The position numbers and the translations under genes are program-made. Shown here piece after piece: positions 156-33,030 of a stretch of DNA of 34,117 bases. The DNA is from an uncultured Ruminococcus sp. GTDB taxonomy: Bacteria > Bacillota > Clostridia > Oscillospirales > Acutalibacteraceae. The DNA lies in assembly GCA_902765855.1 (NCBI GenBank), contig CACXBF010000022.1, positions 1 to 34,117 on the forward strand, in the 5' to 3' direction. The first letter of the stretch is position 1. Each line of letters begins with the position of its first letter. Below the pieces are notes generated by a model. It had not been told where the DNA came from and searched no databases. It worked only from the letters and a program-made list of their open reading frames with translations.

Positions 156-180
156 ACTAATAGATTCGCCGCAAACTAAT

Positions 181-4443: not shown

Positions 4444-4648
4444 TTGCGGCGGGCCGCCGCTGTCAAGACGCGGAATCGCTCGACAAGTCTCGCTCGTGGT
4501 GAGTATGAGAGATTTACCCACGCGGAGGACTAAACTACCGTTCAGTTGATGTGCTTCTTTAAGATAACTAAAAGTTTTGCTCAAGCTTTGTCAAAAGCTT
4601 GCAGTTTCCAAAGGTTCTGCCTTTGGTCGCTCTCTGCAGAGAGCGAAA
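4444..4648 (-). repeat. Interspersed repeat, copy 2
   Basis: This contains GGCGGGCCGCC, GACGCGGAATCG, CAAGTCTCGCTCGT, ACGCGGAGGACTAAACTACC, AAAAGTTTTGCTCAAGC, and a TTTCCAAAGG...GCCTTTGGTCGCTCT dyad. The same order of blocks occurs at 5562-5813, and the reverse complement of most of them at 9174-9360. The two sides are separated by unrelated genes, so this is a dispersed family, not a tandem array. Confidence 0.8.
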
Positions 4649-4708
4649 TGCTTTTGGGCGAAGCCCAACATTTATTTTTTCCCAATCGGTGGACGAAGTC
4701 CACCGATT
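4629..4708. terminator. Chain of three perfect hairpins between ylbJ and the coiled-coil gene
   Basis: Three inverted repeats follow one another: GCTCTCTGCAGAGAGC (4629-4644), TTGGGC-GAA-GCCCAA (654-668 of this kilobase), and AATCGGTGGAC-GAA-GTCCACCGATT (4684-4708). The genes on both sides point toward this gap, so the hairpins probably act as bidirectional terminators. T-runs are present only around 4671-4680, so termination is likely but not certain. Confidence 0.55.
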
Positions 4709-5471: not shown

Positions 5472-5561
5472 GGATACCACCTCAAAAAAATCAATCATAT
5501 CCATTATATCAGAAAAAATAATATTACACAATGCTTTTTTTGTATAAAATAAACTTCTCTA

Positions 5562-5813
5562 AGACACTTAAAAGTTTTGCTCGAGGCGGCGAGCCGCCGC
5601 ACCCAAGACGCGGTGCGTGACCACACAGGACAAGACGCGGAATCGTTTGACAAGTCTCGCTCGTAACGAATATGGGGAATCTACACACGCGGAGGACTAA
5701 ACTACCGTTTAGTTTCAAAATTTCCCTAAGATAATTAAAAGTTTTGCTCAAGCTTTTGAAAAAGCTTGCAGTTTCCAAAGGCAGAGCCTTTGGTCGCTCT
5801 CCGCAGAGAGCGA
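5562..5813 (-). repeat. Interspersed repeat, copy 3 (longest copy)
   Basis: This begins CTAAGACACTTAAAAGTTTTG, then a GGCGGCGAGCCGCCGC dyad, two nearby CAAGACGCGG blocks, CAAGTCTCGCTCGTAACGA, ACGCGGAGGACTAAACTACC, a second CTAAGATAATTAAAAGTTTTG block, AAGCTTTTGAAAAAGCTTG, and a CTTTGGTCGCTCTCC segment. The reverse complement of the same order is seen at 9174-9360. The outer AAAAGTTTTGCTC blocks form direct repeats that bracket the unit. Confidence 0.82.
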
Positions 5814-5847
5814 AACACTTTATCCTTCTCTGAGCGTAGGAGGGTAG

Positions 5848-9033: not shown

Positions 9034-9169
9034 AGTGGCGGATTTTATCCGCCACTTTTTTATTTTGTCAGCAAAATTAGTTAAAAAGGGACGGACTTTG
9101 TCCGTCCCTTATAGGGCAAGAGATGTTAAGGGCTTCGCTCTTAACACCCACGAGGGACTCCGTCCCTCG
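9034..9169. terminator. Array of four perfect hairpins with three-base loops; the first is the ttcA-side terminator
   Basis: The hairpins are AGTGGCGGAT-TTT-ATCCGCCACT followed by TTTTT (9034-9061, a classic terminator), AAGGGACGGAC-TTT-GTCCGTCCCTT (9086-9110), GTTAAGGGC-TTC-GCTCTTAAC (9125-9145), and CGAGGGAC-TCC-GTCCCTCG (9151-9169). Stem sequences differ, but loops are all three bases. They fill the 490-base gap between two convergent genes together with repeat copy 4. Confidence 0.7.
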
Positions 9170-9173
9170 ACCC

Positions 9174-9360
9174 TGCAAGCTTTTGAAAAAGCTTGAGCAA
9201 AACTTTTAATTATCTTAGGGAAATTTTGAAACTAAACTGTAGTTTAGTACTCCGCGTGGATAAACTTCCTAAACTAATTACGAGCGAGACTTGTCGAGCG
9301 ATTCCGCGTCTTGACTGCGGCGGCACGCCGCCTTGAGCAAAACTTTTAATTGTCTTAGAT
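9174..9360 (+). repeat. Interspersed repeat, copy 4
   Basis: This has CAAGCTTTTGAAAAAGCTTG, GAGCAAAACTTTTAATTATC, CTAAACTGTAGTTTAGTACTC, ACGAGCGAGACTTG, GAGCGATTCCGCGTCTTG, a GGCGGCACGCCGCC dyad, and a second GAGCAAAACTTTTAATTGTC. It is close to the exact reverse complement of copy 3 over almost its whole length and in the same orientation as copy 1. Confidence 0.82.
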
Positions 9361-9388
9361 AAGTTTATTAACTCATAGGTAAGGCTTA

Positions 9389-10207: not shown

Positions 10208-11320
10208 ATGGAACAGCATTTTATAAAACCGCCTGTTGAAATCAAATATGCGGAGGAACTTTCCGCCTTAAAGCAGAATGATACTGCAAGAAAGCCTGAA
10301 AATTGGTATCTCTCACCGAAAGCTGTAAGAACTTTTATACTTGGTTCAAAAAGTCCGATAGAGTATAATGGTAAGACCATTGAAATTAAAAAGAAGTTTT
10401 TCGGAAATGATGCTTTGGTCGAAAGATGTATCATAACTCTTGCAGGCAGTCGAGGACTTATGCTTGTCGGTGAGCCTGGAACAGCTAAAACAATGCTTTC
10501 CGAACTTCTTTCAGCGGCTATAAGCGGAACGAGTACAAATACCGTTCAGGGAACAGCCGGTACAACAGAGGATATGATTAAATATAGCTGGAACTATGCA
10601 CTTCTTTTAGCAAAAGGCCCTGTCAAAGAGGCTTTAGTTCCATCACCGCTTTATGTTGGAATGTCAAAAGGTATAATAACACGCTTTGAGGAGATTACAA
10701 GAACTCCTGCAGAAATTCAGGATAGCTTAATATCTGTTATGAGTGATAAGGTTCTCAATATTCCTGAGCTTGATGACGGCGGTCTGCTTTTCGCAAAGCC
10801 GGGCTTTAATATTATTGGTACAGCGAATATCAGAGATAAGGGCGTTAATGAAATGTCAAGTGCGTTGAAAAGACGCTTTAATTTTGAAACAGTAAACCCT
10901 GTCAAAGATGTAAAGCTTGAGAAAAAGATTATTATGAACGAAGTCGAGCAGAATGCCCTTGCCAATAAGATTGAAATGCCAATAGATGTAGATGTTGCAG
11001 AACTTATTGCAGTTACATATCACGAGCTTAGAGAGGGCGTTTCAGAAACCGGCATAAAGATAGATAAGCCATCAGCAGTTATGAGTACAGCAGAGGCTGT
11101 TTCAGTTTACTATCAGACCTTATCTAATGCTTGGTATTATGATGAAGATAAAATAAATCTTGCTGACCTTGTAAAAAACCTCAGCAATGCAGTATGCAAG
11201 GATACAAAAGACGATGCCGAAAAGCTCAAAGCGTATTTTAACACAGTAGTAAAATTCAAGGCTGAAAAATTCGGCGGTATCTGGAAAGAATTTTATTCAG
11301 TGCGTGATAATGCACGATAA
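10208..11320 (+). CDS. MoxR-family AAA+ ATPase
   Basis: About 370 residues. Walker A is GEPGTAKT (residues 88-95), the Walker B/sensor region includes RFEEITRTP, and GTANIRDKG followed by LKRRFNFETV gives sensor 1 and the arginine finger. These mark the MoxR/CbbQ-like AAA+ group, which usually works with a von Willebrand A (VWA) partner to remodel or insert metal into protein complexes. No VWA gene follows; the next gene is convergent, so the partner must be elsewhere. The ATG at 10208 has AAGGAG eight bases upstream; the frame is open from 10151 but without an SD site and through the structured leader. Confidence 0.85.
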   Translation: MEQHFIKPPVEIKYAEELSALKQNDTARKPENWYLSPKAVRTFILGSKSPIEYNGKTIEIKKKFFGNDALVERCIITLAGSRGLMLVGEPGTAKTMLSELLSAAISGTSTNTVQGTAGTTEDMIKYSWNYALLLAKGPVKEALVPSPLYVGMSKGIITRFEEITRTPAEIQDSLISVMSDKVLNIPELDDGGLLFAKPGFNIIGTANIRDKGVNEMSSALKRRFNFETVNPVKDVKLEKKIIMNEVEQNALANKIEMPIDVDVAELIAVTYHELREGVSETGIKIDKPSAVMSTAEAVSVYYQTLSNAWYYDEDKINLADLVKNLSNAVCKDTKDDAEKLKAYFNTVVKFKAEKFGGIWKEFYSVRDNAR

Positions 11321-11332
11321 ATACTAAGCTTA

Positions 11333-11962
11333 TCAGTAATTTGATATTTGAATTTTAATGTTGTTTTCAGAAAGATTTTTAGTTTCAGAAAATATACTCA
11401 ACATATATTCAGATATTTGTTTTGTATAGAAATGGTTGCTAAATTTTTCATCATTAACATCAAAAGACGATAAGGGAGTGGAAAGCCCTGTGCCGATAAG
11501 CTTGACATAGGCTTCCTTTTTCGTCCATATCTCATAAAAAGTATTGTTTTGGTTTTTGCTTTCAAGAATGTATTTATATTCATTTTCTGAAAAAAAGCGT
11601 TTTGCAATTTCAATTCGTGCATCAGAGATTATTTCTGTATCAATTCCGATTGGTGAAGTATCACTTACAAAGGCGACGCAGTTTCCCGAATGAGAAACCG
11701 AAAAATGAAATTCAGGAAAGTTTTTGATAGAGGGCTTTCCATGTTCATTATATTCAAACTGAATTTCATTAGATTTAATACCCGTTTGTTTAGATGCCTC
11801 AGTACATATTAGTAAACCCGAAAATAAAGAAAGAATTTTATCCTTATCAAATCTAAAACGAGATATTTTTTCTAATCTTTCATTAGGTAAAAATGAAAGA
11901 TACTTTTCATATCGTGAAAATTCGCAAGAAGTATCAACAAATACTAATTTTACATTAAGCAT
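11333..11962 (-). CDS. 4'-phosphopantetheinyl transferase, Sfp-type
   Basis: 209 residues, slightly shorter than Sfp (about 224). The family's Mg2+/CoA motifs are present: HFSVSHSG (86-93), IGIDTE (105-110, Asp and Glu metal ligands), and WTKKEAYVKLIG (146-157). The enzyme moves phosphopantetheine from CoA to a serine of carrier proteins, in fatty acid, polyketide or non-ribosomal peptide synthesis. There are no synthetase genes nearby, so the substrate carrier protein is unknown. The start at 11962 follows GAGGATGA. The gene is convergent with the MoxR-like gene with only 12 bases between them. Confidence 0.88.
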   Translation of the reverse strand: MLNVKLVFVDTSCEFSRYEKYLSFLPNERLEKISRFRFDKDKILSLFSGLLICTEASKQTGIKSNEIQFEYNEHGKPSIKNFPEFHFSVSHSGNCVAFVSDTSPIGIDTEIISDARIEIAKRFFSENEYKYILESKNQNNTFYEIWTKKEAYVKLIGTGLSTPLSSFDVNDEKFSNHFYTKQISEYMLSIFSETKNLSENNIKIQISNY

Positions 11963-12059
11963 AATAAATCATCCTCAAAATAATAATTAATTCATTATAA
12001 CAAAATTTTTGATTACTTACAATCTTTGCTATTTCAGATTTTTTAAGCTTAAAAAGTAA

Positions 12060-12088
12060 TTGACATTTTATAAGGTATTTGATATACT
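12060..12088 (+). promoter_or_regulatory. Promoter of the interrupted host tRNA-Leu, now reading into the element
   Basis: TTGACA (12060-12065), 17-base spacer, TATACT (12083-12088), 19 bases before the first base of the tRNA. It would now transcribe the 5' tRNA half, cross attL and continue into the intact tRNA-Leu at 12269, up to the terminator at 12358. Confidence 0.8.
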
Positions 12089-12107
12089 ATTTAAGTATTT
12101 TAAATAT

Positions 12108-12147
12108 GCGGATATGGCGGAATTGGCAGACGCGTATGGTTCAGGTC
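12108..12147 (+). tRNA. 5' half of a split tRNA-Leu(CAG)
   Basis: The acceptor strand GCGGATA is followed by the D-arm (GGCGGAATTGGCAGACGC) and the 5' anticodon strand TATGG with loop bases TTCAGGT. After the loop the sequence turns into element DNA, and no 3' anticodon strand follows. The missing half is at 32977-33030. Joined at the shared 7-bp core, the two give an 87-base tRNA-Leu with all stems paired and an encoded CCA. On its own this half cannot make a tRNA. Confidence 0.92.
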
Positions 12148-12161
12148 GCACCACCTCGGTG
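12141..12161 (+). other. attL core and left arm
   Basis: Core TCAGGTC (12141-12147) is followed by one base and the arm CACCACCTCGGTG (12149-12161). The arm is the inverted repeat of CACCGAAGTGGTG at the other end (one mismatch). In the joined attP the symmetry centre falls between the T and C that open the core, making TC the predicted central dinucleotide. Confidence 0.8.
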
Positions 12162-12268
12162 TAAATTCATTTCAGTAACTATATCCTGCAAATTGTGGAT
12201 TAAGCGATATGCTCCACCTCGGTTCTCACCTCTCAACCGTGTAAAAATTCAGAGAGAAAATTAAATAT

Positions 12269-12355
12269 GCACCCGTGGCGGAACTGGCAGACGCGTATGG
12301 TTCAGGTCCATATTTTCGAGAGGAAGTGCAGGTTCAATTCCTGTCGGGTGCACCA
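12269..12355 (+). tRNA. tRNA-Leu(CAG), intact, carried by the element
   Basis: 87 bases. Acceptor GCACCCG pairs with CGGGTGC, with discriminator A and encoded CCA. The anticodon stem TATGG/CCATA holds loop TTCAGGT with anticodon CAG. A long class II variable arm (TTTTCGAGAGGAAGT) and T-arm GCAGG/CCTGT complete a normal leucine tRNA. It lies 122 bases inside attL. It differs in acceptor and variable arm from the broken host gene but has the same anticodon arm. There is no good promoter of its own in the 122 bases before it. Confidence 0.95.
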
Positions 12356-12357
12356 TT

Positions 12358-12399
12358 GACCTTGTAATCCATCACAATTTACAAGGTCTTTTCTTTTTT
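12358..12399 (+). terminator. Terminator after the element's tRNA-Leu
   Basis: GACCTTGTAA and TTACAAGGTC form a perfect 10-bp stem with an 11-base loop, followed by TTTTCTTTTTT. It begins two bases after the tRNA's CCA. Confidence 0.9.
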
Positions 12400-12521
12400 C
12401 CATAATAAATGCTTTGATTTCGTTTGTAAGATTTCAAAATTTTTTTGAGTAGTCCAACGAGTAATAATTTTATGTACGAATAGCGTAAAATACATGCAAT
12501 GATAAAGTCATTTCTGGATAA

Positions 12522-13186
12522 CAAAAAATACCCTACGGATACTATAGAATCAATAAATCGCAGACAAACGAATGCGACTTAGTTATTGAAAACAATAAAC
12601 AAATCTTATTTCTTGAAATAAAAAACAGACATTTACCTGAAACATTTGAACAAGGCGATGATGTTAGTACTTTACGTTGTCTTGCTGAAGGTATGATTAA
12701 GGCCCAAATACAATGCTTGAAGCTTGAGTATTTTTTAAAAAAGAACGGAAACATTATTCTATAAGATGATAGTGATGAGGATAAACCTGTTACTTATCAA
12801 TTGAACTGGAATAAAAGACGTATTATATGCATTAGCATTTGTGCTCACGAATACTTATTCTTAACAAATAAGGGTTTTAGTAAAAATTCTTAGAAAGCTT
12901 ATTAGTTTCCACATACCATGCGAATGATAAAAATAAAGAGAGTGAGTTGTATAATCCGAACAAAATGAGTAACGAATTAAAAAACATAGTAAATGAAATG
13001 TTTAAATCCGATATGAATCTTAATCAAGTGTTCTTTGATACATTATTTAGGAGTACCCAACAGTTGCATGCCATATTGAGTGTAATTAACTCGTTGGATG
13101 AGTTTATACATTATTTAACCGAACTGATATATATCAATGATGTATATTGTCAGTTGCTCAGAAGTATTAAAATGACAAAAATGTAA
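12522..13186 (+). pseudogene. Broken PD-(D/E)XK-like nuclease gene
   Basis: The frame has no start codon (an in-frame TAA lies at 12519). It encodes a restriction-nuclease-like core: NECDLVIE, then ILFLEIKNR (the D...ExK arrangement), then EQGDD. It meets an in-frame TAA at 12762, continues in the same frame to TAG at 12891, and can be rejoined by one base in the A-run at 12882-12886 to the frame that ends at 13186 and includes the helical segment NLNQVFFDTLFR. So one nonsense codon, one frameshift and loss of the 5' end have inactivated it. The last 79-codon open frame (12947-13186) is therefore probably a fragment, not a separate gene. The downstream gene starts 13 bases later, so the two likely formed a unit. 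Confidence 0.6.
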
Positions 13187-13199
13187 AAGGAGATAAAAT

Positions 13200-14288
13200 A
13201 TGAGTTTACAACATGGTGACAAACTATTTGTATTTTATGATAATGACAAGATACCGAAGCACGGAAGGTATTCGTATTTCGGAACTGATTTTGGAACGGT
13301 ATCTGGGTTTAGTCAGTATATAGACGGTTATATATTTGCTGCGAAAGTCTTATATAGCGAATTTGTTTCTTGTGATAGCTATAGGAATGATATTCTTGAT
13401 ACAATCATTTATCCACTATGCTTTAATTATCGTCAAATCATTGAGCTTTATATCAAATACTTATATTTCAAATATTCTGGAACAAATGATACTGATAAAG
13501 AGAACTTCGTAAAACGTGTGAGCCATAAACTCAATAAAGCGTGGTTAGAAGTAAAACTTTATTTGCTACCGTTGCTGTCCAAAATAAATAGTTCAATAGA
13601 CATTACTCTCTTTGATGAGTTTATTAATGAAGTAGATTCTTTTGATACAGATTCTTTCCGTATGCGCTATCCTATCAAAAAGGATTTAACCCCTGTACAT
13701 ACTTCATCAGTTAAACTTGATGTCGTAGGATTACATTCTAAAATGATTGATTTATTTAACTTGTTTCACAGACTAGATTGTGAAATTGAAAATGTGCTTA
13801 TAAATAACGATTATAATGTAGAACTGACAAACAATATAAAACGTATTTATAATAAATATAAGGACGAAATAATCGAAGTCTCAAAAAAACTAAATAAACT
13901 AGCAGATAAGGAACAAACTGAATTAAAAGAACCACAAGCACATAGTATTGCTGACTATGTTGAAAGTGATTTATTCTATAATCCTCATAATACAGAGTTT
14001 GAAGATTTGATTATGAGGTTGCCATCCGAAAATGCCTTTATTCTAGGTTTGCTGATTCAGGTTGGTAGAAATATTGCTGACGGAAATTGCAAGTTGGCGG
14101 TAAACGAGGAACGAAAAAATGATTTTAATAAACTAATGGAAATAACATTGCAACAATGTGACTCGTTTATTTCTTTAAATGGTCTTTATTCAAATAGGGA
14201 TATGTGCTATTCTCTATTTGAAAAAGGATATATAGTTTCTTCTAGATGGCTGAACCTCTCTCTTGAAATAATAGAAAGTGTTAGTTGA
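13200..14288 (+). CDS. Hypothetical protein with a HEPN-like helical motif
   Basis: 362 residues, soluble, helical, with no signal peptide. I do not recognise the full-length family. The segment YPLCFNYRQIIELYIKYLYF (about residues 79-98) followed about 25 residues later by SHKLNKAWLEVK resembles the RxxxEL(Y)xK...HxLxxLW pattern of HEPN-like proteins seen in accessory regions. The catalytic RxxxxH of HEPN ribonucleases is not clearly present. AAAGGAGATAAA supports the ATG at 13200. It follows the broken nuclease gene by 13 bases; the pair may have been a two-gene defence or toxin unit that has lost one half. Confidence 0.6.
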   Translation: MSLQHGDKLFVFYDNDKIPKHGRYSYFGTDFGTVSGFSQYIDGYIFAAKVLYSEFVSCDSYRNDILDTIIYPLCFNYRQIIELYIKYLYFKYSGTNDTDKENFVKRVSHKLNKAWLEVKLYLLPLLSKINSSIDITLFDEFINEVDSFDTDSFRMRYPIKKDLTPVHTSSVKLDVVGLHSKMIDLFNLFHRLDCEIENVLINNDYNVELTNNIKRIYNKYKDEIIEVSKKLNKLADKEQTELKEPQAHSIADYVESDLFYNPHNTEFEDLIMRLPSENAFILGLLIQVGRNIADGNCKLAVNEERKNDFNKLMEITLQQCDSFISLNGLYSNRDMCYSLFEKGYIVSSRWLNLSLEIIESVS

Positions 14289-14561
14289 CGTATATATTTA
14301 TATATAAAAATCGGCAGCGGGCAACCCATAAAATTTTGTGTAAATAATCCTTCAAGCAATAACAAAACTGTAGAATATCCGCACCACAAAAAGCCGGATT
14401 TTATCGAGCGTGCTTTTTTCCATTTTCCATTGCTTAAATCGTTGGCAGACGCACAACCTTGGGGTTGAGACTTCTTGTATATTTACTACAAATTTAATTC
14501 TGTTAAATTATGCAATTGTCATAATTTTTTATTTATAAAGGTCGTGTGTCTGCAAATCATT

Positions 14562-16172
14562 TTACCCTTGCAATATGAGATTATGCTCCACACCGCTTTT
14601 CCCGTAAATCTCATAATGTTTTGTAAATTTGGCTTTCAGATTAATTTCTATCCTCAGCTTTTTATCACTCTCATAAATTTTGATTTCATCAACCAGCAAC
14701 CGTAAATTTGCATCACTGATTGCTCCGTCCTTGATGATTTCTTCAATCAGGTCTACGGTTTTCTTCAACTCTGATTTGCGTTTCTTAATCGTTGTATTGT
14801 AGTATTTAATAGATTCAATTTCTTCTGTTATCTGCTGTATATCTTCTTCGCAAGTTTTTAGCATTTCGGTATAGATTTCTGCGTGTTCCTTATCCCTGAT
14901 GCGTTCAAGGAGTATTTCTTTTTGGTCGCTCTTGCGCTGTTCAAGCCTATCTTCCAGCTTTTTCAGCTTGTTATTAACCGTGTTTTTCTTCTTCATCCAC
15001 TTCTTAACATCGGTTTCAATGGACTTGTAATTTTCAATTGCAGAGTCCTTGACCGCAAGAATTTCCTTGTATATCAGTTCATCAAGGTCCCTTTCGTTTA
15101 CCCTATGCGGACTGCAATTCTCCTTGCCGTATCGGTGATAGCCGTTACATACATATTCTATCCTATCGGGATGTTCTCGCCATTTTCTTGTTTTGCATAC
15201 AAAACACGAGCCGCAGTCACCGCACTTGATAAGTCCTGCATATCTGTGACATGGTTTATTACTTCCTGCTCTTACATTTCTTTTAACTTTATCCGAGATT
15301 AAAAATTGTACCTGCTTCCACTTATCCTCATCGATAATGGCAGGTACAATATTTTCATGTCTGTATTGTTCCTCTTCGGGAAGATTCTTTCTGATGTGAT
15401 TGATTTTATTGTTGTAGGTCTTGTGATTAACCACCGTACCTATGTAAAACTCGTTTTCAAGAATTCTCTTGACACCTTTGTTATCCCATAGGTATCTTCT
15501 GCCTATCTCGGGTTTGTTGTAGCCGAGATTCTTGCCGAATAGTTTTTTCTGATAGTATGCAGGAGATTTCACACCTTCCTCGTTCAGAATTTTCGCTATT
15601 GCATTGAATCCGTAACCGCTTAAATACATATCAAAAATTCTACGGACAATTTCTGCGTGTTCCTCAACTATGACTATTTCGTTGGTATTCTTATCTTTGA
15701 AATACCCCATAGGCGGTGTCAGGACAAGTCCGTCCTTTAACTTTTGATTCATGCCTGCTCTGACTTTCTTTGAGATATCACGGGCATACATATCATTGAA
15801 CAGTCCTTTAAAACCGATAATCAAATCGTCCGATTCGTTTCCTGTGTCAAGATTTTCAGTTACAGAAACTACATTGATTCCATTTTCCCTTAGGTAGTCA
15901 ATGAATATTGCTGTCTGAGTTTTATGTCTGCCGAGCCGTGACATATCCTTTACAAGGATTGTTTCAAAGCTTTTCTTCTCAACCTCTTCATAGATTTTAT
16001 TGATGCCCTCTCGATTGAAGTGCATTCCCGAAACATTATCGTCATACGACTCTCCCACAATTTCGTGATTGTTTGCCTTAGCATATTCGACTAATATATT
16101 TCGCTGATTTGTCAACGAGTTAAGCTCGGCATCTTCATCTCTTGACAGTCTGTAATACAACCATACTTTCAT
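14562..16172 (-). CDS. Large serine recombinase (integrase of the element)
   Basis: 536 residues. The N-terminal resolvase domain (1-150) has the catalytic serine at residue 10 in YYRLSRDED and the arginine-rich VKDMSRLGRHKT motif. A recombinase domain (about 165-290) and a zinc ribbon follow, with cysteines in IKCGDCGSCFVC and YVCNGYHRYGKENC, then a long C-terminal coiled coil (about 370-470). This is the plan of TndX/Int-Bxb1-type integrases, which join attP and attB through a 2-base overlap. It is the only complete recombinase between the two attachment sites and therefore the likely integrase. GGAGAGGAG precedes the ATG. A palindrome with an att-arm-like sequence lies just upstream. Confidence 0.93.
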   Translation of the reverse strand: MKVWLYYRLSRDEDAELNSLTNQRNILVEYAKANNHEIVGESYDDNVSGMHFNREGINKIYEEVEKKSFETILVKDMSRLGRHKTQTAIFIDYLRENGINVVSVTENLDTGNESDDLIIGFKGLFNDMYARDISKKVRAGMNQKLKDGLVLTPPMGYFKDKNTNEIVIVEEHAEIVRRIFDMYLSGYGFNAIAKILNEEGVKSPAYYQKKLFGKNLGYNKPEIGRRYLWDNKGVKRILENEFYIGTVVNHKTYNNKINHIRKNLPEEEQYRHENIVPAIIDEDKWKQVQFLISDKVKRNVRAGSNKPCHRYAGLIKCGDCGSCFVCKTRKWREHPDRIEYVCNGYHRYGKENCSPHRVNERDLDELIYKEILAVKDSAIENYKSIETDVKKWMKKKNTVNNKLKKLEDRLEQRKSDQKEILLERIRDKEHAEIYTEMLKTCEEDIQQITEEIESIKYYNTTIKKRKSELKKTVDLIEEIIKDGAISDANLRLLVDEIKIYESDKKLRIEINLKAKFTKHYEIYGKSGVEHNLILQG

Positions 16173-16449: not shown

Positions 16450-18180
16450 CTACATTTGCATAGTCGGACTGTCATCAGGTTCTTCATATTCAATATTTTC
16501 TTCTTTTGATATTGCACTTGCAATCAATCCGGCGGTAATACCAAGTAAAGTACCAATATCACTTCCATTTTGCTCAGCTGTAATCCGCTTTCTGCGTTCT
16601 TCTTCACCCCCCGAATCATCATCAATTATACGAGAAAGTGATTCAGCAAGAGAGTTGATACTGCCGAGGACAGTATGGTTATTGCTATCCATTTTAGAGT
16701 TGTCAGGAGTGTCGACTTCTTCACCATTTCTGATATCGCTGACTCCAGTTGTTGACCTTTCTTCAAGGTGTTGTTCAAAAATTCTTCTTGAATCTTCCCA
16801 GCCTGTTGGATAGATTCGGTCATCTGTGTTTGCACCGTCCTGATTCCTTTCAGACTCTGTTCTGAAATTTTCTTCAGCTCCGTCTGACAACTCTTCGAGA
16901 TTGATTCCATATTGTCTTTGTTGATTTCCAGAATTCTCTCCAGATATTCCACCATCTGGTCGTCCGTTGAGATTTTTGAAATCAAGTTGTACAGCTCCGG
17001 CTGAAAGGTTATTGCGGTTCTCAACAGATTTAGTTCCTCCTCTCTGACCTGTGACGGAATCGAAATCACTTTCGTTTCTCCCGATAGCAGTTCTATCGCT
17101 GTCAGTGAGTTGCTGTTCCTCTGCTTGAGGCTTTCCAAAATATTGTTCTTGCCTGTATCTGAATTCATTTTCCATACTTCCTTTCAAATATTTATCGTTG
17201 TGTAGTTTAATATCTCTGCACTTCATTTTGTTCGGGCATTGATAGGTGATGTATTTCCTGCCATCAGTCCAAGTCACCGAATAACCCATAATTGACATTG
17301 CGTTTATGAAATCTTCCTTGCTTCCGCTTATGTTCATAGCTTTGTCTATGTCATTCATCAGTTTGAATTTCCAGCTCTGACCTTTGACTGCCGTGCGGTA
17401 TTCTCTTGTTGAGATTTTTATACCGTCCTTGTTGTAAGGCACAAGAGTTGAAAGATTATGCTGTCTGCATATCTCATCGCTCAAGACTCGTAATGATTTA
17501 AGTGTATTTGGATTCTGCCGAAGCTTTTTACCGTTTTCAAAACTGACAGAGTTGATAACAAAGTGAGAATGAATATGCTGTGCATCACAATGCGTTGCGA
17601 CTAAAACTTCATATCCTGTCCACGCTTTCTCGGCAAACTCTATAGCTATCTCATGAGCTTGGTGCGGAGTAATATTTTCTTCGGGTGAGAATGATTGAAC
17701 GTACTGATAGAAATTCATACCGTCAGTTTTACCGTATGACTTTTTAGTAGCCATAAACTCCTTGAATGCATTTTCACCGTCACAATTAATTCCGATGACA
17801 AGTCTTTGATTTGAAATCTCATCATAGACTTTCTTATCCTGACAACAGTAATCAATTACACCTTTCATCGCACTGATTGATTGTTTTGACTCACGAATAT
17901 ATGTCACCGACAGTTTTATGATTGCATCATAGATTTTTCTTTGCATAGCAATCATTTCACTAAAGTTGTATGAATTAAAAGCACCGCTGTTTATCTTTCT
18001 CGTTATCTGATTCAGGTTGTTGCCAATCCTTTTTAGCTCAACAAGCAACGGTTGTAAATCAACTACTTTGATTTCACTTTTTAATGAAGATTTCAAAATA
18101 TACTCAGTCAATGTCAGCTGAGCTTTCTTTGACATTTTATAGATTGCAGACTTTTCAGATTGAGTTAATCTTATACTCAA
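16450..18180 (-). CDS. Fused MobC-relaxase (MOBP-type) mobilization protein
   Basis: At least 576 residues. The first 90 are MobC-like: a ribbon-helix-helix start (RLTQSEKSAIY) and the typical LKRIGNNLNQITRKIN. The relaxase part then begins VTYIRESKQSISAMKGVIDY, which elsewhere is the start of a separate protein. The relaxase metal motif is QHIHSHFVINS, with upstream MNFYQYVQSF and HEIAIEFAEKAW. The C-terminal 200 residues are hydrophilic and low in complexity. The protein should nick oriT and carry the strand into the recipient. The start is uncertain. TTG 18180 is given here, but GGAGG at 18217-18221 lies nine bases from an in-frame ATA at 18207, which would add the family-like N-terminus xENRKRNQT; ATA would be a rare start or a mutated ATG. 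Confidence 0.88.
   Translation of the reverse strand: MSIRLTQSEKSAIYKMSKKAQLTLTEYILKSSLKSEIKVVDLQPLLVELKRIGNNLNQITRKINSGAFNSYNFSEMIAMQRKIYDAIIKLSVTYIRESKQSISAMKGVIDYCCQDKKVYDEISNQRLVIGINCDGENAFKEFMATKKSYGKTDGMNFYQYVQSFSPEENITPHQAHEIAIEFAEKAWTGYEVLVATHCDAQHIHSHFVINSVSFENGKKLRQNPNTLKSLRVLSDEICRQHNLSTLVPYNKDGIKISTREYRTAVKGQSWKFKLMNDIDKAMNISGSKEDFINAMSIMGYSVTWTDGRKYITYQCPNKMKCRDIKLHNDKYLKGSMENEFRYRQEQYFGKPQAEEQQLTDSDRTAIGRNESDFDSVTGQRGGTKSVENRNNLSAGAVQLDFKNLNGRPDGGISGENSGNQQRQYGINLEELSDGAEENFRTESERNQDGANTDDRIYPTGWEDSRRIFEQHLEERSTTGVSDIRNGEEVDTPDNSKMDSNNHTVLGSINSLAESLSRIIDDDSGGEEERRKRITAEQNGSDIGTLLGITAGLIASAISKEENIEYEEPDDSPTMQM
16626..17168 (-). CDS. MobB-like membrane protein overprinted within the relaxase gene
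   Basis: 180 residues in a different frame of the same strand as the relaxase C-terminal region. It has its own start, ATG 17168, with AAGGAA about nine bases upstream. The sequence reads like a real protein: a Leu/Ile-rich N-terminal part, a coiled coil (about 60-150) and a single C-terminal membrane helix LKWIAITILSSAVSTLLL (about 158-175). In IncQ plasmids such as RSF1010, mobB lies within mobA in another frame and encodes a membrane protein that stabilises the relaxase and aids transport. The present case looks alike in layout; sequence homology cannot be judged here. Confidence 0.7.
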   Translation of the reverse strand: MNSDTGKNNILESLKQRNSNSLTAIELLSGETKVISIPSQVREEELNLLRTAITFQPELYNLISKISTDDQMVEYLERILEINKDNMESISKSCQTELKKISEQSLKGIRTVQTQMTESIQQAGKIQEEFLNNTLKKGQQLESAISEMVKKSTLLTTLKWIAITILSSAVSTLLLNHFLV

Positions 18181-18430: not shown

Positions 18431-19531
18431 TCACGTTGGCTGACACAGCTCGTCAGGGTCGCAAGTGACGAAAGGAACGCAAGTTTTGGCGCTAATAATA
18501 TTTACGTCACTTACGGCACTTGAGTCACTATCGGGCAGATAGTGAACATTTACAAACCTTTTACCGTTACTTCTGTATGAGCTAAAGAAAACATCGTTAT
18601 CCTCTAATTCGTAGCGCCATTTATTCATCATCTGTTTTAACGCTTTTGCAGAGATTTCTTTACAGCAGAAAGAATTAAATTCTTCTGCGAATTCGGTATT
18701 CGTACCTTTGAAGATTTTTACCTTTTTCATAAACTCAATCAACTGAATCATCTCATCCGACAAAAGTATTTCAGGACTTTCTACACTGTCCGAAACTAAA
18801 TCCCATATATGATTGTCTTTTGAAAAGTTCAGTTCCAACTCTCTGTATTCAATATCCCTGCCCGTGCAAATCATAGTTGCGTTGTTCTGACTTCTCTTGC
18901 TCTTATCAAGAATAAATGTTGTATCAACCGCACCGCTGATTCCTGTTGTGCCTGAGATTTTATTTAGAGGATCATTGTCACCTTGCTTGCGCAGATGATG
19001 TACAAGCAGAAGAGAAATTTTCAGCTTGTCCGCTAATCTTTTCAGTTCCTCAATTTCCTGATAATCATTTGCGTAAGTAGTATCCTTATTTTTACTTCGT
19101 ATCATCTGAAATGTATCTATGACAACAAGAACCGTATCTTTATGCTCTGCGACAAAACTTTCAATCTGTTCTGCAAGTCCGTCCGACAGCGAACACGAAG
19201 ATGTTGCAAAGAATACATTGTTCGGAACTTCATCTGTAATTTCATTTAGCCTTTGTTGGATTCTGCTCAAATTGTCCTCAAGACAAAGATACAAGGTAGT
19301 TCCCTTCGTAGTTTTAAAATTCCACACCTCCTCTCCTTTGGCTATGCGAACACACCAATCAAGCACTAACCACGACTTACCTATCTTCGGAGCACCGCAG
19401 AGCATTGATACTCCCTGCGGAAGCAACGAGTCAATGCAAAAGCTTATCGGCTTGATTCGCATATTCATTAATGTTTCACCGTCAACGACAGCAAGATTTT
19501 TGTTGTTACGCACTATAACTACTCCTTCCAT
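18431..19531 (-). CDS. RepA-like AAA ATPase (RecA-fold helicase family)
   Basis: 366 residues. Walker A is GAPKIGKSW (46-54), Walker B is TVLVVIDTF, and LLLVHHLRK carries the histidine of hexameric RepA/DnaB-like helicases. This is the AAA_25 type found in IncQ RepA and in many mobilizable elements. It may unwind the element after excision or conjugative transfer, or support limited replication. The C-terminal 110 residues look like a helical DNA-binding extension. It is the first gene of the leftward mobilization block and is divergent from the DUF6076-like gene, with about 140 bases between them. ATG 19531 follows the AAAATATTTTATGG region with a weak SD. Confidence 0.82.
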   Translation of the reverse strand: MEGVVIVRNNKNLAVVDGETLMNMRIKPISFCIDSLLPQGVSMLCGAPKIGKSWLVLDWCVRIAKGEEVWNFKTTKGTTLYLCLEDNLSRIQQRLNEITDEVPNNVFFATSSCSLSDGLAEQIESFVAEHKDTVLVVIDTFQMIRSKNKDTTYANDYQEIEELKRLADKLKISLLLVHHLRKQGDNDPLNKISGTTGISGAVDTTFILDKSKRSQNNATMICTGRDIEYRELELNFSKDNHIWDLVSDSVESPEILLSDEMIQLIEFMKKVKIFKGTNTEFAEEFNSFCCKEISAKALKQMMNKWRYELEDNDVFFSSYRSNGKRFVNVHYLPDSDSSAVSDVNIISAKTCVPFVTCDPDELCQPT

Positions 19532-21754: not shown

Positions 21755-21792
21755 TTAAATAAATATTGATATTAGTAATTACGGTGATGAAA

Positions 21793-22227
21793 GTGATTAG
21801 AGAAATCAAGACAAACGAATTGAACAAATTGCTTGAATTATATACTCATTTGCACGAGCTTGGTGTTCCTGAGAATACAGAACATTTAGAAAAAACATGG
21901 AATACAATTTGCAATGACGAAAATCATCACATTATTGTTTCTGAGATTGAAGGCAAAATTGTTTCTTCCTGCGTGTGCGTTATAATTCCAAATCTTACAA
22001 GAAATATCCGTCCATATGCATTTATAGAAAATGTGGTCACGCACACTGATTACAGAGGAAAAGGCTATGCAACCGCTTGTCTGAATTATGCAAAGGAGAT
22101 TGCACAGAAAGCGGATTGCTACAAAATGATGCTACTTACAGGCTCAAAGAACGATAAAACTTTAGATTTCTATAAAAAATCAGGCTACAACTCAGAATAC
22201 AAAACTGCATTTATCCAATGGTTATAG
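21793..22227 (+). CDS. GNAT-family N-acetyltransferase
   Basis: About 144 residues, a single GNAT fold. The acetyl-CoA loop is DYRGKGYATACLNYA (the Q/RxxGxG/A type), and the C-terminal YKKSGY motif closes the fold. The substrate is unknown. The start is taken as GTG 21793 with GGTGA five bases upstream; in-frame ATG 21787 and TTG 21766 lack SD sites. It is the first gene of a tight rightward cluster (gaps of 2 to 11 bases to the fourth gene). Confidence 0.82.
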   Translation: MIREIKTNELNKLLELYTHLHELGVPENTEHLEKTWNTICNDENHHIIVSEIEGKIVSSCVCVIIPNLTRNIRPYAFIENVVTHTDYRGKGYATACLNYAKEIAQKADCYKMMLLTGSKNDKTLDFYKKSGYNSEYKTAFIQWL

Positions 22228-22237
22228 GGGTGATATT

Positions 22238-22681
22238 TTGAAAATAGAGTACAGACAAGCAACGAATACCGATAGTGAAGCTATTGCCTTATTAGCTGTT
22301 CAGATGTGGGCAAGCCATACAGTAGAAGATTTGTCAAACGGTTTTTCTTCGTTAATGAAGAGCGATAATAATGCTTTATTCCTGTTGATTATTAACGGTA
22401 CTATACAAGGGTTTGCACAATGCGGATTAAGGCACGATTATGTTGAAGGCACAAACAGCAGTCCAGTAGGATATTTAGAAGGAATTTTTGTACAAGAAGA
22501 ATATCGAAAACAAGGCTATGCAAAACAGCTTTTGAATTACTGTGAGAAGTGGGCAAAAGAAAAAGGTTGCAGTGAATTTGCCAGTGACTGCGAACTCGAT
22601 AATGAAATCAGTCGCCAATTTCATATAAATTTAGGCTTTGACGAAGCAAATAGAATAATCTGCTTTACAAAGAAAATATGA
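22238..22681 (+). CDS. Aminoglycoside 6'-N-acetyltransferase-like (AAC(6') type)
   Basis: 147 residues, the usual length of the AAC(6') subgroup of GNAT enzymes. Family-like motifs are ALLAVQMWASHT near the N-terminus, YLEGIFVQEEYRKQGYA (acetyl-CoA loop), and GCSEFASDCELDNEIS with FHINLGFDEANRIICFTKK at the end. This closing pattern is characteristic of AAC(6')-I enzymes, which acetylate the 6' amino group of kanamycin, tobramycin and amikacin. The start is TTG 22238 with AGGGGTGA five bases before it. Resistance is inferred from motifs; related enzymes of this group can be weak or act on other amines. Confidence 0.75.
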   Translation: MKIEYRQATNTDSEAIALLAVQMWASHTVEDLSNGFSSLMKSDNNALFLLIINGTIQGFAQCGLRHDYVEGTNSSPVGYLEGIFVQEEYRKQGYAKQLLNYCEKWAKEKGCSEFASDCELDNEISRQFHINLGFDEANRIICFTKKI

Positions 22682-22692
22682 TGAGGAAAACA

Positions 22693-23202
22693 ATGAATAT
22701 ACAATACAGAAAAGCAACTTCAGAAAATTTTGATAAAATAATGGAGCTTATCAAATCCGCTATAATTAATATGAATGAAGCAGAAATATATCAGTGGGAT
22801 GCAATTTATCCCGATGAAGCTACTATAAAACAGGATATTGACAATAATGACTTATACATAGGAATTGTTGACGAAAAGATAGCTGTCATTTATGTAATAA
22901 ACAATTCCTGTGACGAAGAATACAATAATGGAGATTGGCAGTATCCCGATACAAAATATAGAATCATTCACAGGCTTTGCGTTCACCCTGATTTTCAAAA
23001 TAAAGGTGTCGGCAAAATCGTAATGGAATATATTGAATCCAAACTTAGCAATGCAGGTATTGAATCTATACGGCTGGATGCTTTCACCAAAAATCCTTAT
23101 GCACTAAAGCTTTATAAAAACCTCGGCTACAAAATCGTAGGCTATGCCGATTGGCGTATGGGAAGATTTTATCTAATGGAAAAATATTTAACAGGTAACT
23201 GA
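22693..23202 (+). CDS. GNAT-family N-acetyltransferase
   Basis: 169 residues. The acetyl-CoA-binding loop is VHPDFQNKGVGKIVM, and NPYALKLYKNLGYKIVGYADW is the C-terminal GNAT motif. The start is ATG 22693, preceded by GAGG six bases away; an upstream ATG overlapping the previous stop codon (22678) is less well placed. The substrate is unknown. It lies 2 bases before the methyltransferase gene and almost overlaps the AAC(6')-like gene, so co-transcription is near certain. Confidence 0.8.
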   Translation: MNIQYRKATSENFDKIMELIKSAIINMNEAEIYQWDAIYPDEATIKQDIDNNDLYIGIVDEKIAVIYVINNSCDEEYNNGDWQYPDTKYRIIHRLCVHPDFQNKGVGKIVMEYIESKLSNAGIESIRLDAFTKNPYALKLYKNLGYKIVGYADWRMGRFYLMEKYLTGN

Positions 23203-23204
23203 AT

Positions 23205-23978
23205 ATGGACTTACGAAAAACCTTCAATACAGATGAATACAATTACGACAAGTCAAGACCTGCTTATCCGAAAGATTTATTTGAGGATATTTTTGATTAT
23301 GTAAATTTATCAGAAAACAGTAATGTACTTGAAATTGGAATTGGCACAGGACAAGCTACTTTGCCGTTCTTAAATAAAGGTTGTAATGTGACTGCTGTTG
23401 AACTTGGCGACAAGCTTTCAAGATATTGTGCGCAGAAATTTTCATATTTTGATAAATTCAATATTATTAATTCAGATTTCATTGAAGCTGATTTGCCTGA
23501 AAAGAGCTTTGACCTGATTTACAGTGCAACCGCTTTTCATTGGATTCCAAAAGACAGCGGATATGCAAAAATAAAATCATTGCTAAAGTCTGACGGTGTT
23601 GTCGCCTTATTCTGGAATCATCCATTTGTCAGCAATGTAAGTGACGAAACAAATCTTGCGAGTATAGCTGTTTATAAAAAGTACCGTTCGAATGATAAAA
23701 TACCTGTTGAATTTGATTCGATAAAATGTCAGGAGCAAATCAATGAGCTTAAGCAATATGGATTTACCAATGTAAAATCAAAAGTATATAAACGAATCCG
23801 CAGGCTGACAAGTGAGGAATACATATCTTTAATCAAGACTTATTCCGACCATAACGCTTTACCAAAAGAAGTGCGGAAAGCTTTTGAAAAGGATATGAAG
23901 AAAGCTATTGATGATGTCGGCGGAGTTATTAATATTTACGATACGATTGATTTGTATTTAGGGAGATATTCACTATGA
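23205..23978 (+). CDS. Class I SAM-dependent methyltransferase
   Basis: 257 residues. Motif I is VLEIGIGTGQATL (about 41-53), motif II is VTAVELG, and motif III/IV is FDLIYSATAFHWIP. The FHW(I/V) element is typical of the UbiE/Trans-aconitate group of small-molecule methyltransferases. The N-terminus FNTDEYNYDKSRPAYP is also characteristic of this group. The substrate is not known; in this cluster it may modify a drug. An ATG overlaps its stop codon (23975) but that frame is cut after 34 codons by the MITE-like insertion. Confidence 0.85.
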   Translation: MDLRKTFNTDEYNYDKSRPAYPKDLFEDIFDYVNLSENSNVLEIGIGTGQATLPFLNKGCNVTAVELGDKLSRYCAQKFSYFDKFNIINSDFIEADLPEKSFDLIYSATAFHWIPKDSGYAKIKSLLKSDGVVALFWNHPFVSNVSDETNLASIAVYKKYRSNDKIPVEFDSIKCQEQINELKQYGFTNVKSKVYKRIRRLTSEEYISLIKTYSDHNALPKEVRKAFEKDMKKAIDDVGGVINIYDTIDLYLGRYSL

Positions 23979-23988
23979 ACAAAATTAC

Positions 23989-27805: not shown

Positions 27806-27830
27806 ATTAAAACGCTGAATGCGTTTTAAT
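27806..27830. promoter_or_regulatory. Perfect dyad at the transcription start of the ATPase operon
   Basis: ATTAAAACGC (27806-27815) and GCGTTTTAAT (27821-27830) form a 10-bp inverted repeat with a 5-base centre, right at the expected transcription start. There is no T-run after it. It could be a repressor operator or a 5' stem-loop in the message. Confidence 0.5.
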
Positions 27831-27869
27831 TCTACTCAGATTACTAAGAATGTTCGGAGGTTGTTTATT

Positions 27870-29243
27870 ATGTTGATGAGTTTTTCGGTTGAAAACTTTG
27901 GCTCTATCGGTCATATGCAGACATTAAATCTAATGACCGGCAAATCAAGAGGAAAATCAAGCCATCTTATGCCTGTATATAAAAAGAAATCCCTAAAATT
28001 TTCGTCTATATACGGCGGTAATGCATCAGGAAAATCCACTCTAATTCGAGCTATTCATTACGGGAAGATGGTGATTCAGAACGGATATATGGACAAAAGA
28101 TTTATGTCTGTTAATAAGACTAATTCTAAGTGGATTGAAAAGCCTTCAACTTTTATTTATTCGGTTTTCATAAATAAAAAAATCTATGAGTATGGTTTTT
28201 CTTTGATATGGGATCAAGAAAAGATTGTTAAAGAATGGTTAAAAGAAAAAAACTCTCGTTATGAGGAACAAACAATTTTTATAAGAGATTCACTTGAAAA
28301 CAAATTTGAAATAAGTTTAGCTAAAAGCCTTAATGACGAGATTTATAATAGAGTTTGTATCTACTTCAAAGATTCTGCTCAAGAGGATAATAATTTATTT
28401 CTCAAAGAAATCAACTATAAAAAAGGAAATTTGTTTGATGAATCCTCACTACAGTTTTTACGAATATTGTATAATTGGTTTGATACAAAGCTTAAATTTG
28501 TATATCCAAATGACGATTCCGATTTGGGCCAATACAATTTCATTAACTATCCCGAAAACAATGATAAATTGTATGAATGCCTTTTTAGATTAGATATCCC
28601 CATAGATAGAATGTCTTATATTGACACTACATTTGAACACGCTTTCAAGAGTACGCCTAGACCTATAATTGAAAAAATACAAAACGATATTAAAACTTTA
28701 TATGAAAGAGAAGAAATGAAAGACAAAGCTCCTACTTCCTTTGTACTACGTTTAGGAGATAGCTATTACATTTTAGAAGCGGGTTCAGATGGGTTAACCA
28801 AGATTAAAACAATAGTTTTCTCACATAATTCTTTTGGCAACTATGAGTTTAGCGAAGAATCTGATGGTACAAAAAGAATTTTAGAATTATTGGAAATAAT
28901 TACTTCCCCTGAAAAGGATGTAACATATTTTGTTGATGAAATTGATAGAAGTTTACACCCCTTGTTAACGGAACAGTTTATAACTATGTATCTTAATCCG
29001 GAAGAAATAAATTTCAATCAATTGATAATTACTACGCACGAATCACGTCTTTTGAATCTTAAGACATTGAGGAAAGATGAGATAAATTTTATTTCCAATA
29101 TTAATGGTGAATCACACATTGTCAGATTAGATGAATTTGAAGCCAGTGAATCTCGCTCTGATATTAATTTAGAATTAGCATATTTAAACGGGAGATATAA
29201 CGGGATTCCAAACATTATAAAGCCTGAATGTGGCAATAAGTAG
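27870..29243 (+). CDS. AAA ATPase of the OLD/AbiL-like (ABC-type ATPase) group
   Basis: About 457 residues. The N-terminus MSFSVENFGSIGHMQTLNL opens the ABC/SMC-like fold, Walker A is GGNASGKST, Walker B is FVDEIDRSLHPLL, and the switch region is IITTHESRLL. This is the plan of ATPases in phage-defence pairs (OLD, AbiLi, PARIS AriA, Septu PtuA), where a second protein is the effector. There is no nuclease (TOPRIM) domain in this protein. The start is ATG 27870 after CGGAGG (nine-base spacing); the frame is open 51 bases further up without an SD site. The partner gene follows after 10 bases. Confidence 0.8.
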   Translation: MLMSFSVENFGSIGHMQTLNLMTGKSRGKSSHLMPVYKKKSLKFSSIYGGNASGKSTLIRAIHYGKMVIQNGYMDKRFMSVNKTNSKWIEKPSTFIYSVFINKKIYEYGFSLIWDQEKIVKEWLKEKNSRYEEQTIFIRDSLENKFEISLAKSLNDEIYNRVCIYFKDSAQEDNNLFLKEINYKKGNLFDESSLQFLRILYNWFDTKLKFVYPNDDSDLGQYNFINYPENNDKLYECLFRLDIPIDRMSYIDTTFEHAFKSTPRPIIEKIQNDIKTLYEREEMKDKAPTSFVLRLGDSYYILEAGSDGLTKIKTIVFSHNSFGNYEFSEESDGTKRILELLEIITSPEKDVTYFVDEIDRSLHPLLTEQFITMYLNPEEINFNQLIITTHESRLLNLKTLRKDEINFISNINGESHIVRLDEFEASESRSDINLELAYLNGRYNGIPNIIKPECGNK

Positions 29244-32957: not shown

Positions 32958-32983
32958 CACCGAAGTGGTGTAATCATCAGGTC
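32958..32983 (+). other. attR arm and core
   Basis: Arm CACCGAAGTGGTG (32958-32970), six bases, then core TCAGGTC (32977-32983). The arm mirrors the left arm CACCACCTCGGTG with one mismatch. The two ends joined give a 40-base attP with 13-bp arms, the usual form for a large serine integrase. Confidence 0.8.
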
Positions 32984-33030
32984 CATATGAATGCAAATTC
33001 ATGCAGGTTCAAGTCCTGTTATCCGCACCA
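32977..33030 (+). tRNA. 3' half of the split tRNA-Leu(CAG)
   Basis: Loop bases TCAGGT, then the 3' anticodon strand CCATA, a variable arm with GAAT/ATTC stem, T-arm GCAGG-TTCAAGT-CCTGT, acceptor TATCCGC, and ACCA. All stems pair with or complete the 5' half at 12108-12147. It has no promoter of its own here and cannot form a tRNA alone. Confidence 0.92.

What the first reader, a model, noticed from the sequence alone, without database searches (positions are those of the whole stretch)
12060..12399. The element carries its own tRNA-Leu(CAG) and may borrow the promoter of the gene it destroys
A complete tRNA-Leu with the same CAG anticodon lies 122 bases inside attL. The only good promoter is that of the broken host tRNA (TTGACA-17-TATACT at 12060-12088), and a strong terminator follows at 12358. 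Integration would thus remove one CUG-reading tRNA and at once switch on a replacement. I do not know of a described case of a serine-integrase element with this design.
Basis: partly seen in the sequence, partly recalled or inferred. Interest (0 to 1): 0.85.

Follow-up and report, generated by a model that had tools for sequence, protein, structure and literature searches.

The report
Mobile element that swaps host tRNA
A mobile DNA element of a gut-type bacterium cuts the cell's only found copy of one leucine tRNA gene at its anticodon and carries, just inside its own left end, a complete spare of the same tRNA that comes to sit behind the broken gene's promoter; about two dozen related elements are built the same way, and some are stacked on one another.

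Summary
Confirmed and extended. A 20.8-kb mobilizable element with a large serine integrase splits the host tRNA-Leu(CAG) between window 12142 and 32979; joined, the halves are identical to the intact gene at the empty site of a congener. An intact tRNA-Leu(CAG) with another acceptor stem lies 122 nt inside attL and is the only CAG gene found in the genome. Of 39 integrase-family loci (window included), 29 have a convergent tRNA-Leu (CAG or UAG), 24 of these directly behind a broken 5' half; 25 other serine-integrase loci have none. The attP dyad centres on U33-N34 in 6 of 6 elements with both ends; the carried isoacceptor equals the broken one in 28 of 28 arrays, with one exception (L207) among loci found otherwise. 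Promoter-like sites are enriched before the broken half, not in the spacer. Up to four broken halves precede one intact tRNA. Many cassettes carry a covarying pseudoknotted leader RNA without Rfam match. Replacement by promoter capture is the best reading; transcription is inferred. Ten literature searches listed no description.

The parts
12060..12088 (+). sigma-70-type promoter of the broken host tRNA gene (TTGACA-17-TATACT, TG before -10)
   Evidence: similar promoter at the empty site
12108..12142 (+). 5' part of the host tRNA-Leu(CAG), ending with U33-C34; core dinucleotide TC at 12141-12142
12143..12161 (+). attL arm that comes from attP (AGGTCGCACCACCTCGGTG)
12194..12268 (+). structured leader RNA (hairpin plus H-type pseudoknot) directly before the carried tRNA
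12269..12355 (+). carried, intact tRNA-Leu(CAG), acceptor GCACCCG/CGGGTGC
12358..12399 (+). terminator of the carried tRNA (10-bp stem, T-rich tail)
12356..14380 (.). segment absent at this place in the close relative L081 (there the tRNA is followed at once by the sequence found here from 14381 on); probably the remnant of a further, stacked element (inference); ORFs 12947-13186 (not scanned) and 13200-14288 (no Pfam or PADLOC match)
14376..14386 (+). TATCCGCACCA: looks like the 3' end of a lost tRNA; followed by sequence that in L081 directly follows the carried tRNA
14562..16172 (-). large serine integrase, 536 aa (Resolvase, Recombinase, zinc beta ribbon)
16450..18180 (-). MobA-type relaxase with NikA/MobC part: mobilizable
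18431..19531 (-). AAA_25 ATPase, perhaps a replication protein (inference)
27819..29243 (+). AAA ATPase, AbiLi-like, candidate anti-phage cargo
30928..32682 (+). anti-phage dCTP deaminase-like protein, cargo
   Evidence: NCBIfam 349 bits, under its cut-off of 400; PADLOC 400 bits
32958..32976 (+). attR arm that comes from attP (CACCGAAGTGGTGTAATCA)
32979..33030 (+). 3' part of the host tRNA-Leu(CAG); core TC at 32977-32978

Best explanation
The element is an integrative and mobilizable element whose large serine integrase recombines attP with the anticodon loop of tRNA-Leu, exchanging strands at the dinucleotide U33-N34 (N34 = wobble base: C for the CAG tRNA, U for the UAG tRNA). This splits the gene: promoter and 5' half stay at attL, the 3' half ends up about 21 kb away at attR. 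Because a serine integrase needs only a 2-bp identity, attP does not rebuild the gene as in tyrosine-integrase elements. The element therefore carries, just inside attL, a promoter-less cassette: (often) a structured leader RNA, a complete tRNA-Leu of the same isoacceptor, and a terminator. Integration places this cassette behind the captured promoter, so the cell swaps one tRNA-Leu gene for another. The new tRNA again holds the attachment sequence, so further elements can insert into it; this builds arrays of dead 5' halves before one live tRNA. Shown by sequence: split, empty site, core position, isoacceptor match, recurrence in relatives, stacking, leader covariation. Inferred: that this integrase makes the cut, transcription from the captured promoter, function of the carried tRNA, need for replacement, role of the leader (most likely to keep the pre-tRNA apart from the dead half and help its processing).
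For: Joined halves are identical to the intact native gene of congener G001, whose locus lacks the carried tRNA; joins give an ARAGORN-complete tRNA-Leu in 6 of 6 elements with both ends found. The dyad of attP (12 to 18 of 19 matches) is centred on U33-N34 in 6 of 6; other centres reach at most 8. 29 of 39 integrase-family loci (window included) have a convergent tRNA-Leu within 8 kb, 22 of 39 within 1.5 kb; 24 of the 29 have a broken half directly before it. Control: 0 of 25 other serine-integrase loci have a tRNA-Leu within up to 1.5 kb of flank; 4 of 25 have another tRNA. Carried isoacceptor equals the nearest broken half in 28 of 28 arrays, 19 CAG and 9 UAG. Promoter-like sites: spacer 3 of 24 (2.75 expected), upstream 18 of 29 (5.3 expected). 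Only CAG gene found in the genome; in 150 family genomes the CAG anticodon-arm pattern is present in 118 and exactly once in 108. Stacks: four halves in G236, three in L083, two in L081, L093, L097, L123, L125. In L097 the 3' half (..AACCGCA) pairs with the 5' half nearer to the carried tRNA (GCGGTTA), not with the outer one (GCGGATA), so the later element sits in the tRNA that an earlier one brought.
Against: No transcript or activity data. Two loci with 10 and 6.3 kb of flank (L087, L091) show no tRNA-Leu, in L127 it is on the other strand, and 5 of 29 loci with tRNA have no half next to it (L086, L089, L094, L126, L133). L126 carries its tRNA far inside with its own promoter. Among 9 of 21 leader-found loci with a half, L207 joins a UAG half to a CAG tRNA and L208 is cut past the anticodon. 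The leader is found by pattern in only 16 of 24 nearest spacers, so it is not indispensable. G940 has a second intact CAG tRNA on another contig. 32 of 150 family genomes (16 of 115 near-complete ones) and congener G002 lack the CAG pattern, through divergence or true absence, so the gene may not be essential. Loci are related by descent; counts are not independent events.
Confidence: 0.85

Rival explanations
1. The carried tRNA is not for the host but for the element: codon compensation or escape from anticodon nucleases, as proposed for phage tRNAs; the place next to attL is incidental.
For: Such ends are proposed for phage tRNAs (abstract of PMC10264068). CUG is commoner in nine sampled element genes (43 of 344 Leu codons) than in nine sampled chromosomal genes of the window (16 of 311).
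Against: It is the isoacceptor that the element breaks in 28 of 28 arrays, and sits in a fixed place behind the broken gene's promoter. In the window the anticodon stem-loop of carried and host tRNA is identical (both printed), so no escape by loop changes.
Confidence: 0.07
2. The tRNA is carried as a fresh attachment site, so that later elements insert into it (stacking) instead of elsewhere; replacement is a side effect.
For: Arrays of up to four halves, nested order in L097.
Against: An attachment site should need only the anticodon arm (general knowledge: about 40 bp), not a complete tRNA with matched acceptor stem, CCA and terminator; in the window the carried tRNA differs from the host's in acceptor and variable arm yet is a complete tRNA-Leu.
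Confidence: 0.05
3. No mobile replacement: a tandem duplication of a chromosomal tRNA-Leu of which one copy decayed, with an integrase nearby.
For: A 48-nt stretch with the half and the start of the full tRNA is 88% identical.
Against: The half ends exactly at an attP dyad, the missing 3' part lies 20.8 kb away beside the other attP arm, and the empty site of the congener has one tRNA only.
Confidence: 0.02

Closest known systems
Integrative and mobilizable elements with a serine integrase (Tn4451 type; review PMC5704250, passages seen)
   Same: Serine integrase plus relaxase, 2-bp identity in the att sites, Clostridia hosts
   Different: In the passages seen, the review says that site-specific serine-integrase IMEs disrupt dispensable genes, and the table parts seen list tRNA sites under tyrosine integrases; here a tRNA gene is split inside the anticodon loop and a whole replacement gene is brought along
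Tyrosine-integrase elements in tRNA 3' ends (NBU1, SSV1, and many islands by recall)
   Same: tRNA gene as attachment site, host keeps a working tRNA
   Different: They rebuild the gene from homology inside attP; here the gene is split and a separate, different-sequence tRNA takes over
Archaeal tRNA genes disrupted by pNOB8-type elements (PMC3293823, passages seen)
   Same: An element changes the architecture of a tRNA gene at insertion
   Different: Archaeal, another integrase type, intron gain and tRNA fragments; the passages seen mention no promoter capture
Phage-borne tRNAs (PMC10264068, abstract and outline seen)
   Same: Mobile element with its own tRNA
   Different: Those are thought to supplement or protect translation during infection; here one tRNA of the isoacceptor that is broken
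Large serine recombinase survey (PMC10083194, passages seen)
   Same: Same enzyme family, target-gene disruption
   Different: Its held main text has 0 occurrences of tRNA; in the passages seen, target genes are clustered as proteins

Membership tests
Large serine recombinase / serine integrase | Resolvase catalytic domain, Recombinase domain, zinc beta ribbon | tested here: met
   Pfam PF00239, PF07508, PF13408 over cut-off
Large serine recombinase / serine integrase | attP with inverted arms around a 2-bp core shared by attB | tested here: met
   Dyad centred on TC or TT in 6 of 6 elements
Large serine recombinase / serine integrase | Catalyses the attP x attB reaction | not testable with these tools
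   needs an assay
Integrative and mobilizable element | Own integrase and relaxase or oriT, no complete conjugation apparatus | tested here: inconclusive
   Integrase and MobA relaxase found; 9 ORFs of the element were scanned with Pfam and none is a conjugation-channel gene, but the other ORFs were not scanned with Pfam and oriT was not sought
Integrative and mobilizable element | Excision and mobilization | not testable with these tools
   the empty site in a congener is consistent only
tRNA-site element with rebuilt tRNA (tyrosine integrase type) | attP contains part of the target tRNA so that the gene stays intact | tested here: not met
   gene is split, attP arms do not rebuild it
tRNA-site element with rebuilt tRNA (tyrosine integrase type) | Tyrosine integrase | tested here: not met
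   the integrase next to the cassette is serine type
Known Rfam RNA family for the leader (including Termite-leu, RF01730) | Match to the covariance model | tested here: not met
   three leader stretches searched with permissive filters: no match near a family's cut-off; best in the two leader-only stretches E 2.3 at 14.6 bits against 33
Replacement tRNA | Same isoacceptor as the broken gene | tested here: met
   28 of 28 nearest halves; one mismatch, L207, among loci found by the leader model
Replacement tRNA | Expressed and charged with leucine | not testable with these tools
   needs RNA data

The most novel reading that the evidence does not exclude
A whole clade of serine-integrase elements in Clostridia lives by tRNA swapping: the core dinucleotide reads the wobble position of the target, the carried tRNA has the same wobble base, the captured promoter drives it through a new class of pseudoknotted leader RNA that releases the tRNA from the dead half, and the swap is renewed by each incoming element. 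At least one other type of element, which splits the T arm of the same kind of gene and keeps a serine-recombinase fragment, reached the same solution, and hosts can end up dependent on the element's tRNA.
Probability: 0.5. Interest if true: 0.9.

Novelty: new variant of a known kind. Interest (0 to 1): 0.82.

Why it matters
It shows how a serine integrase, which cannot rebuild its target from 2 bp of identity, can still live in a usually single-copy tRNA gene: it brings a spare. That makes a host tRNA a mobile, replaceable part, explains arrays of tRNA-Leu fragments that would otherwise be taken for pseudogenes or assembly errors, and links the recombination core to the wobble base. It is directly testable with transcript mapping and a two-plasmid recombination assay. 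The leader adds a covarying RNA structure that has no Rfam match. The integrases are also candidates for tools with a defined tRNA landing site.

Tried and rejected
Searches that led nowhere: viral contigs for the integrase and for the neighbouring integrase (no relative confirmed); Rfam for the leader; ten literature searches. Of these, searches found 125, 30 and 78 papers and listed 20 each; the others listed all of their 0 to 5. No listed title or abstract start describes such an element. Beyond listings I saw passages of PMC2864571, PMC10083194, PMC5704250 and PMC3293823 and the abstract of PMC10264068; no paper was read whole. The first count of leader pairs used wrong columns and is discarded; one search is the corrected one. 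The search for halves used a faulty pattern (found none) and was replaced. The first join of halves was off by two bases and was corrected.

Considered and rejected: chance duplication of a tRNA (empty site, attP dyad); self-cleaving ribozyme or T-box as the leader (no Rfam match; otherwise judged from recalled motifs, not tested); split-tRNA trans-splicing (textbook knowledge speaks against it in bacteria; not tested). Rows dropped before counts: loci L072, L076, L120 duplicate L082, L094, L085; identical leader copies were collapsed; one divergent leader (L084, second copy) was left out of alignment A1 but kept, and L136 is in A1 but not. The leader structure was drawn from these same sequences, which favours it over the slid versions. 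Three of the 21 leader hits outside the window (L197, L198, L200) are loci used to build the model.

Full report
WHAT IS THERE. The window is one contig (C22) of a 2.39-Mb, 43-contig genome. At 12108-12142 the 5' part of a tRNA-Leu(CAG) stands behind a good promoter (12060-12088) and stops in the anticodon loop. Its 3' part lies at 32979-33030. In congener G001 the same left flank (window 11301-12147, 90% identical) runs into one intact tRNA-Leu(CAG); the joined halves of the window are identical to it over 87 nt, and the carried tRNA is not in that fetched locus. The DNA between (cores 12141-12142 and 32977-32978, 20,836 bp apart) is therefore an inserted element. It encodes a large serine integrase, a MobA-type relaxase, an AAA_25 ATPase and cargo that includes an anti-phage dCTP deaminase-like protein and an AbiLi-like ATPase. 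It also holds a complete tRNA-Leu(CAG) at 12269-12355 with another acceptor stem, followed by a terminator.

THE ONLY COPY. Of 41 tRNA matches in the genome ARAGORN types 40; the Leu set is CAA, UAG, two GAG, UAA and the element's CAG. In 150 genomes of the family a CAG anticodon-arm pattern occurs in 118 and exactly once in 108 of them (the window's genome counts twice because the half also matches). So the target is normally a single-copy gene. The pattern misses divergent genes; 32 of 150 genomes, and congener G002, have no match, so some strains may do without this tRNA.

RELATIVES. Searches gave, with the window and without duplicates, 39 loci with integrases 43 to 100% identical. A tRNA-Leu in convergent orientation lies within 8 kb of the integrase end in 29 of 39 (19 CAG, 10 UAG), within 1.5 kb in 22. 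Of the other ten, six have at most 1.6 kb of flank (L082, L096, L098, L099, L121, L131; in L096 a tRNA-Leu is cut by the contig end), L083 has its tRNA partly masked by N, L127 has it on the other strand, and L087 and L091 have none in 10 and 6.3 kb. In 24 of the 29, broken 5' halves lie directly before the tRNA, 86 to 197 nt start to start for the nearest half. Of 25 other serine-integrase loci (29 to 36% identical; up to 1.5 kb flanks) none has a tRNA-Leu, four have another tRNA.

THE CUT. For six elements both ends were found on one contig; 3' halves alone were seen in L089, L091 and L099. The joined halves of the six give complete tRNA-Leu genes. Their attP sites are imperfect palindromes (12 to 18 of 19 positions) centred exactly on U33-N34 of the tRNA; other centres tested give at most 8. 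The core is TC when the target is CAG and TT when it is UAG. In 28 of 28 arrays the carried tRNA has the anticodon that fits the nearest broken half. One locus found by the leader model alone (L207) breaks the rule, and in another (L208) the tRNA is cut past the anticodon. Arm positions in the other halves were found by a search that asked for the arm's end, so only the six two-ended cases test the geometry independently.

PROMOTER. With one consensus rule, promoter-like sites occur in 3 of 24 spacers (2.75 expected from mononucleotide shuffles) and in 18 of 29 stretches of 110 nt before the first half or tRNA (5.3 expected). In L126 the tRNA is deep inside and has its own promoter, so capture is the rule but not universal.

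STACKING. L083 has three halves, and L081, L093, L097, L123 and L125 have two. In L097 the 3' half fits the 5' half nearer to the carried tRNA, which shows that the later element sits in the tRNA that an earlier one brought. In the window itself the 2-kb segment 12356-14380 is absent from the near relative L081, whose tRNA is followed at once by the sequence found here from 14381 on; I read it as the rest of a second, stacked element.

LEADER. Between attL arm and tRNA many cassettes share a sequence of about 75 nt: a hairpin, then an H-type pseudoknot. On 23 aligned copies 95.4% of pair cells are standard, 9 of 15 pairs show changes on both sides and 45 cells do (shuffle mean 15.7, 0 of 500 reach it; slid structures at most 53.3% paired). 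The structure was drawn from these sequences and they are related, so these controls flatter it somewhat. The pseudoknot arms fit their own partner better than those of other copies (mean 5.0 against 3.8 pairs, 0 of 5000 permutations). A covariance model without the pseudoknot, run on 245 genomes of the order, gave 22 hits in 19 genomes. Of the 21 outside the window (three of them loci used to build the model), 19 have a tRNA-Leu downstream on the same strand, 14 of these within 50 nt and 5 within about 160 to 290 nt; in L215 the leader lies at a contig edge and a tRNA-Leu(GAG) is upstream of it; L203 has none in the 203 nt left of its contig. No Rfam family matches. By pattern the leader is present in 16 of 24 nearest spacers, so it helps rather than being required. 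Its role is inferred.

A SECOND TYPE. In G810, G1028 and G829 a tRNA-Leu(CAG) is cut in the T arm. In G810 and G1028 an intact tRNA-Leu(CAG) starts about 142 nt after the start of the cut one; in G829 two anticodon-type halves come first. In G1028 the cut tRNA is itself preceded by a half and a leader. In G810 both ends are found 2.6 kb apart; read by eye, the inner ends carry palindromic arms CCCTTAAAAAG and CTTTTTAAGGG. The piece holds a 284-aa ORF that matches the neighbouring window integrase 33136-33996 at 31%. This looks like another case of the same design.

HOW IT WORKS. Shown by sequence: split, place, isoacceptor match, stacking, leader structure. Inferred: the integrase named here makes the cut; the captured promoter transcribes the carried tRNA; the cell depends on it. 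A UAG tRNA that could read CUG by wobble remains, so loss may be harmful rather than lethal.

KNOWN OR NEW. A review of IMEs states that serine-integrase IMEs disrupt dispensable genes (passages). A survey of thousands of serine recombinases has no occurrence of tRNA in its held main text. Ten searches in the held library listed no description (three of the listings were cut at 20); most subscription papers and all preprints are missing there. I therefore call it a new variant of a known kind.

Noticed in passing
window 33136-33996 (-); L158-L187: C-terminal part of another serine recombinase (DUF4368 type) just outside the right end. Of 30 loci with it or a relative, 22 have an intact tRNA of varied type (Ser, Tyr/Thr, Pro, Arg, Leu, Gln) convergent and about 70 to 350 bp from the integrase end: a serine-integrase clade that seems to use tRNA 3' ends in general. 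G000 contig 23 has a 95% identical copy beside tRNA-Leu(UAG).
   Followed up: partly
L145 (G810), L144 (G1028), L142 (G829): tRNA-Leu(CAG) cut in the T arm and followed, directly or after further halves, by an intact tRNA-Leu(CAG): apparently a second kind of element with the same replacement design.
   Followed up: partly
window 14443-14460 and the same place in L081, L075, L084, L092, L122: A D-arm-like piece (TTGGCAGACGC.. or close) recurs between the tRNA terminator and the integrase end in several relatives (read by eye); purpose unknown.
   Followed up: no
window 80-163, 4446-4654, 5548-5821, 9158-9378: Dispersed chromosomal repeats of about 35-160 nt, direct and inverted, roughly 78 to 92% alike, with palindromic parts; look like a REP or MITE family.
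   Followed up: no
L133 (G919): tRNA-Leu(CAG) with a native-looking promoter but the downstream sequence of the element's tRNA in L130 and no broken half: possibly a hybrid made by recombination between half and carried tRNA (read by eye).
   Followed up: no
L086, L089 20491-20576, L196, L199, L204: tRNA-Leu(CAG) with the leader but no broken half found before it; may be carried tRNAs that stayed as the host's own after the element or the half was lost.
   Followed up: partly
window 21766-27570: Element cargo of small enzymes: by reading of the translations several GNAT-like acetyltransferases; a methyltransferase-like and an AraC/Rob-like regulator by sub-cut-off NCBIfam matches.
   Followed up: no
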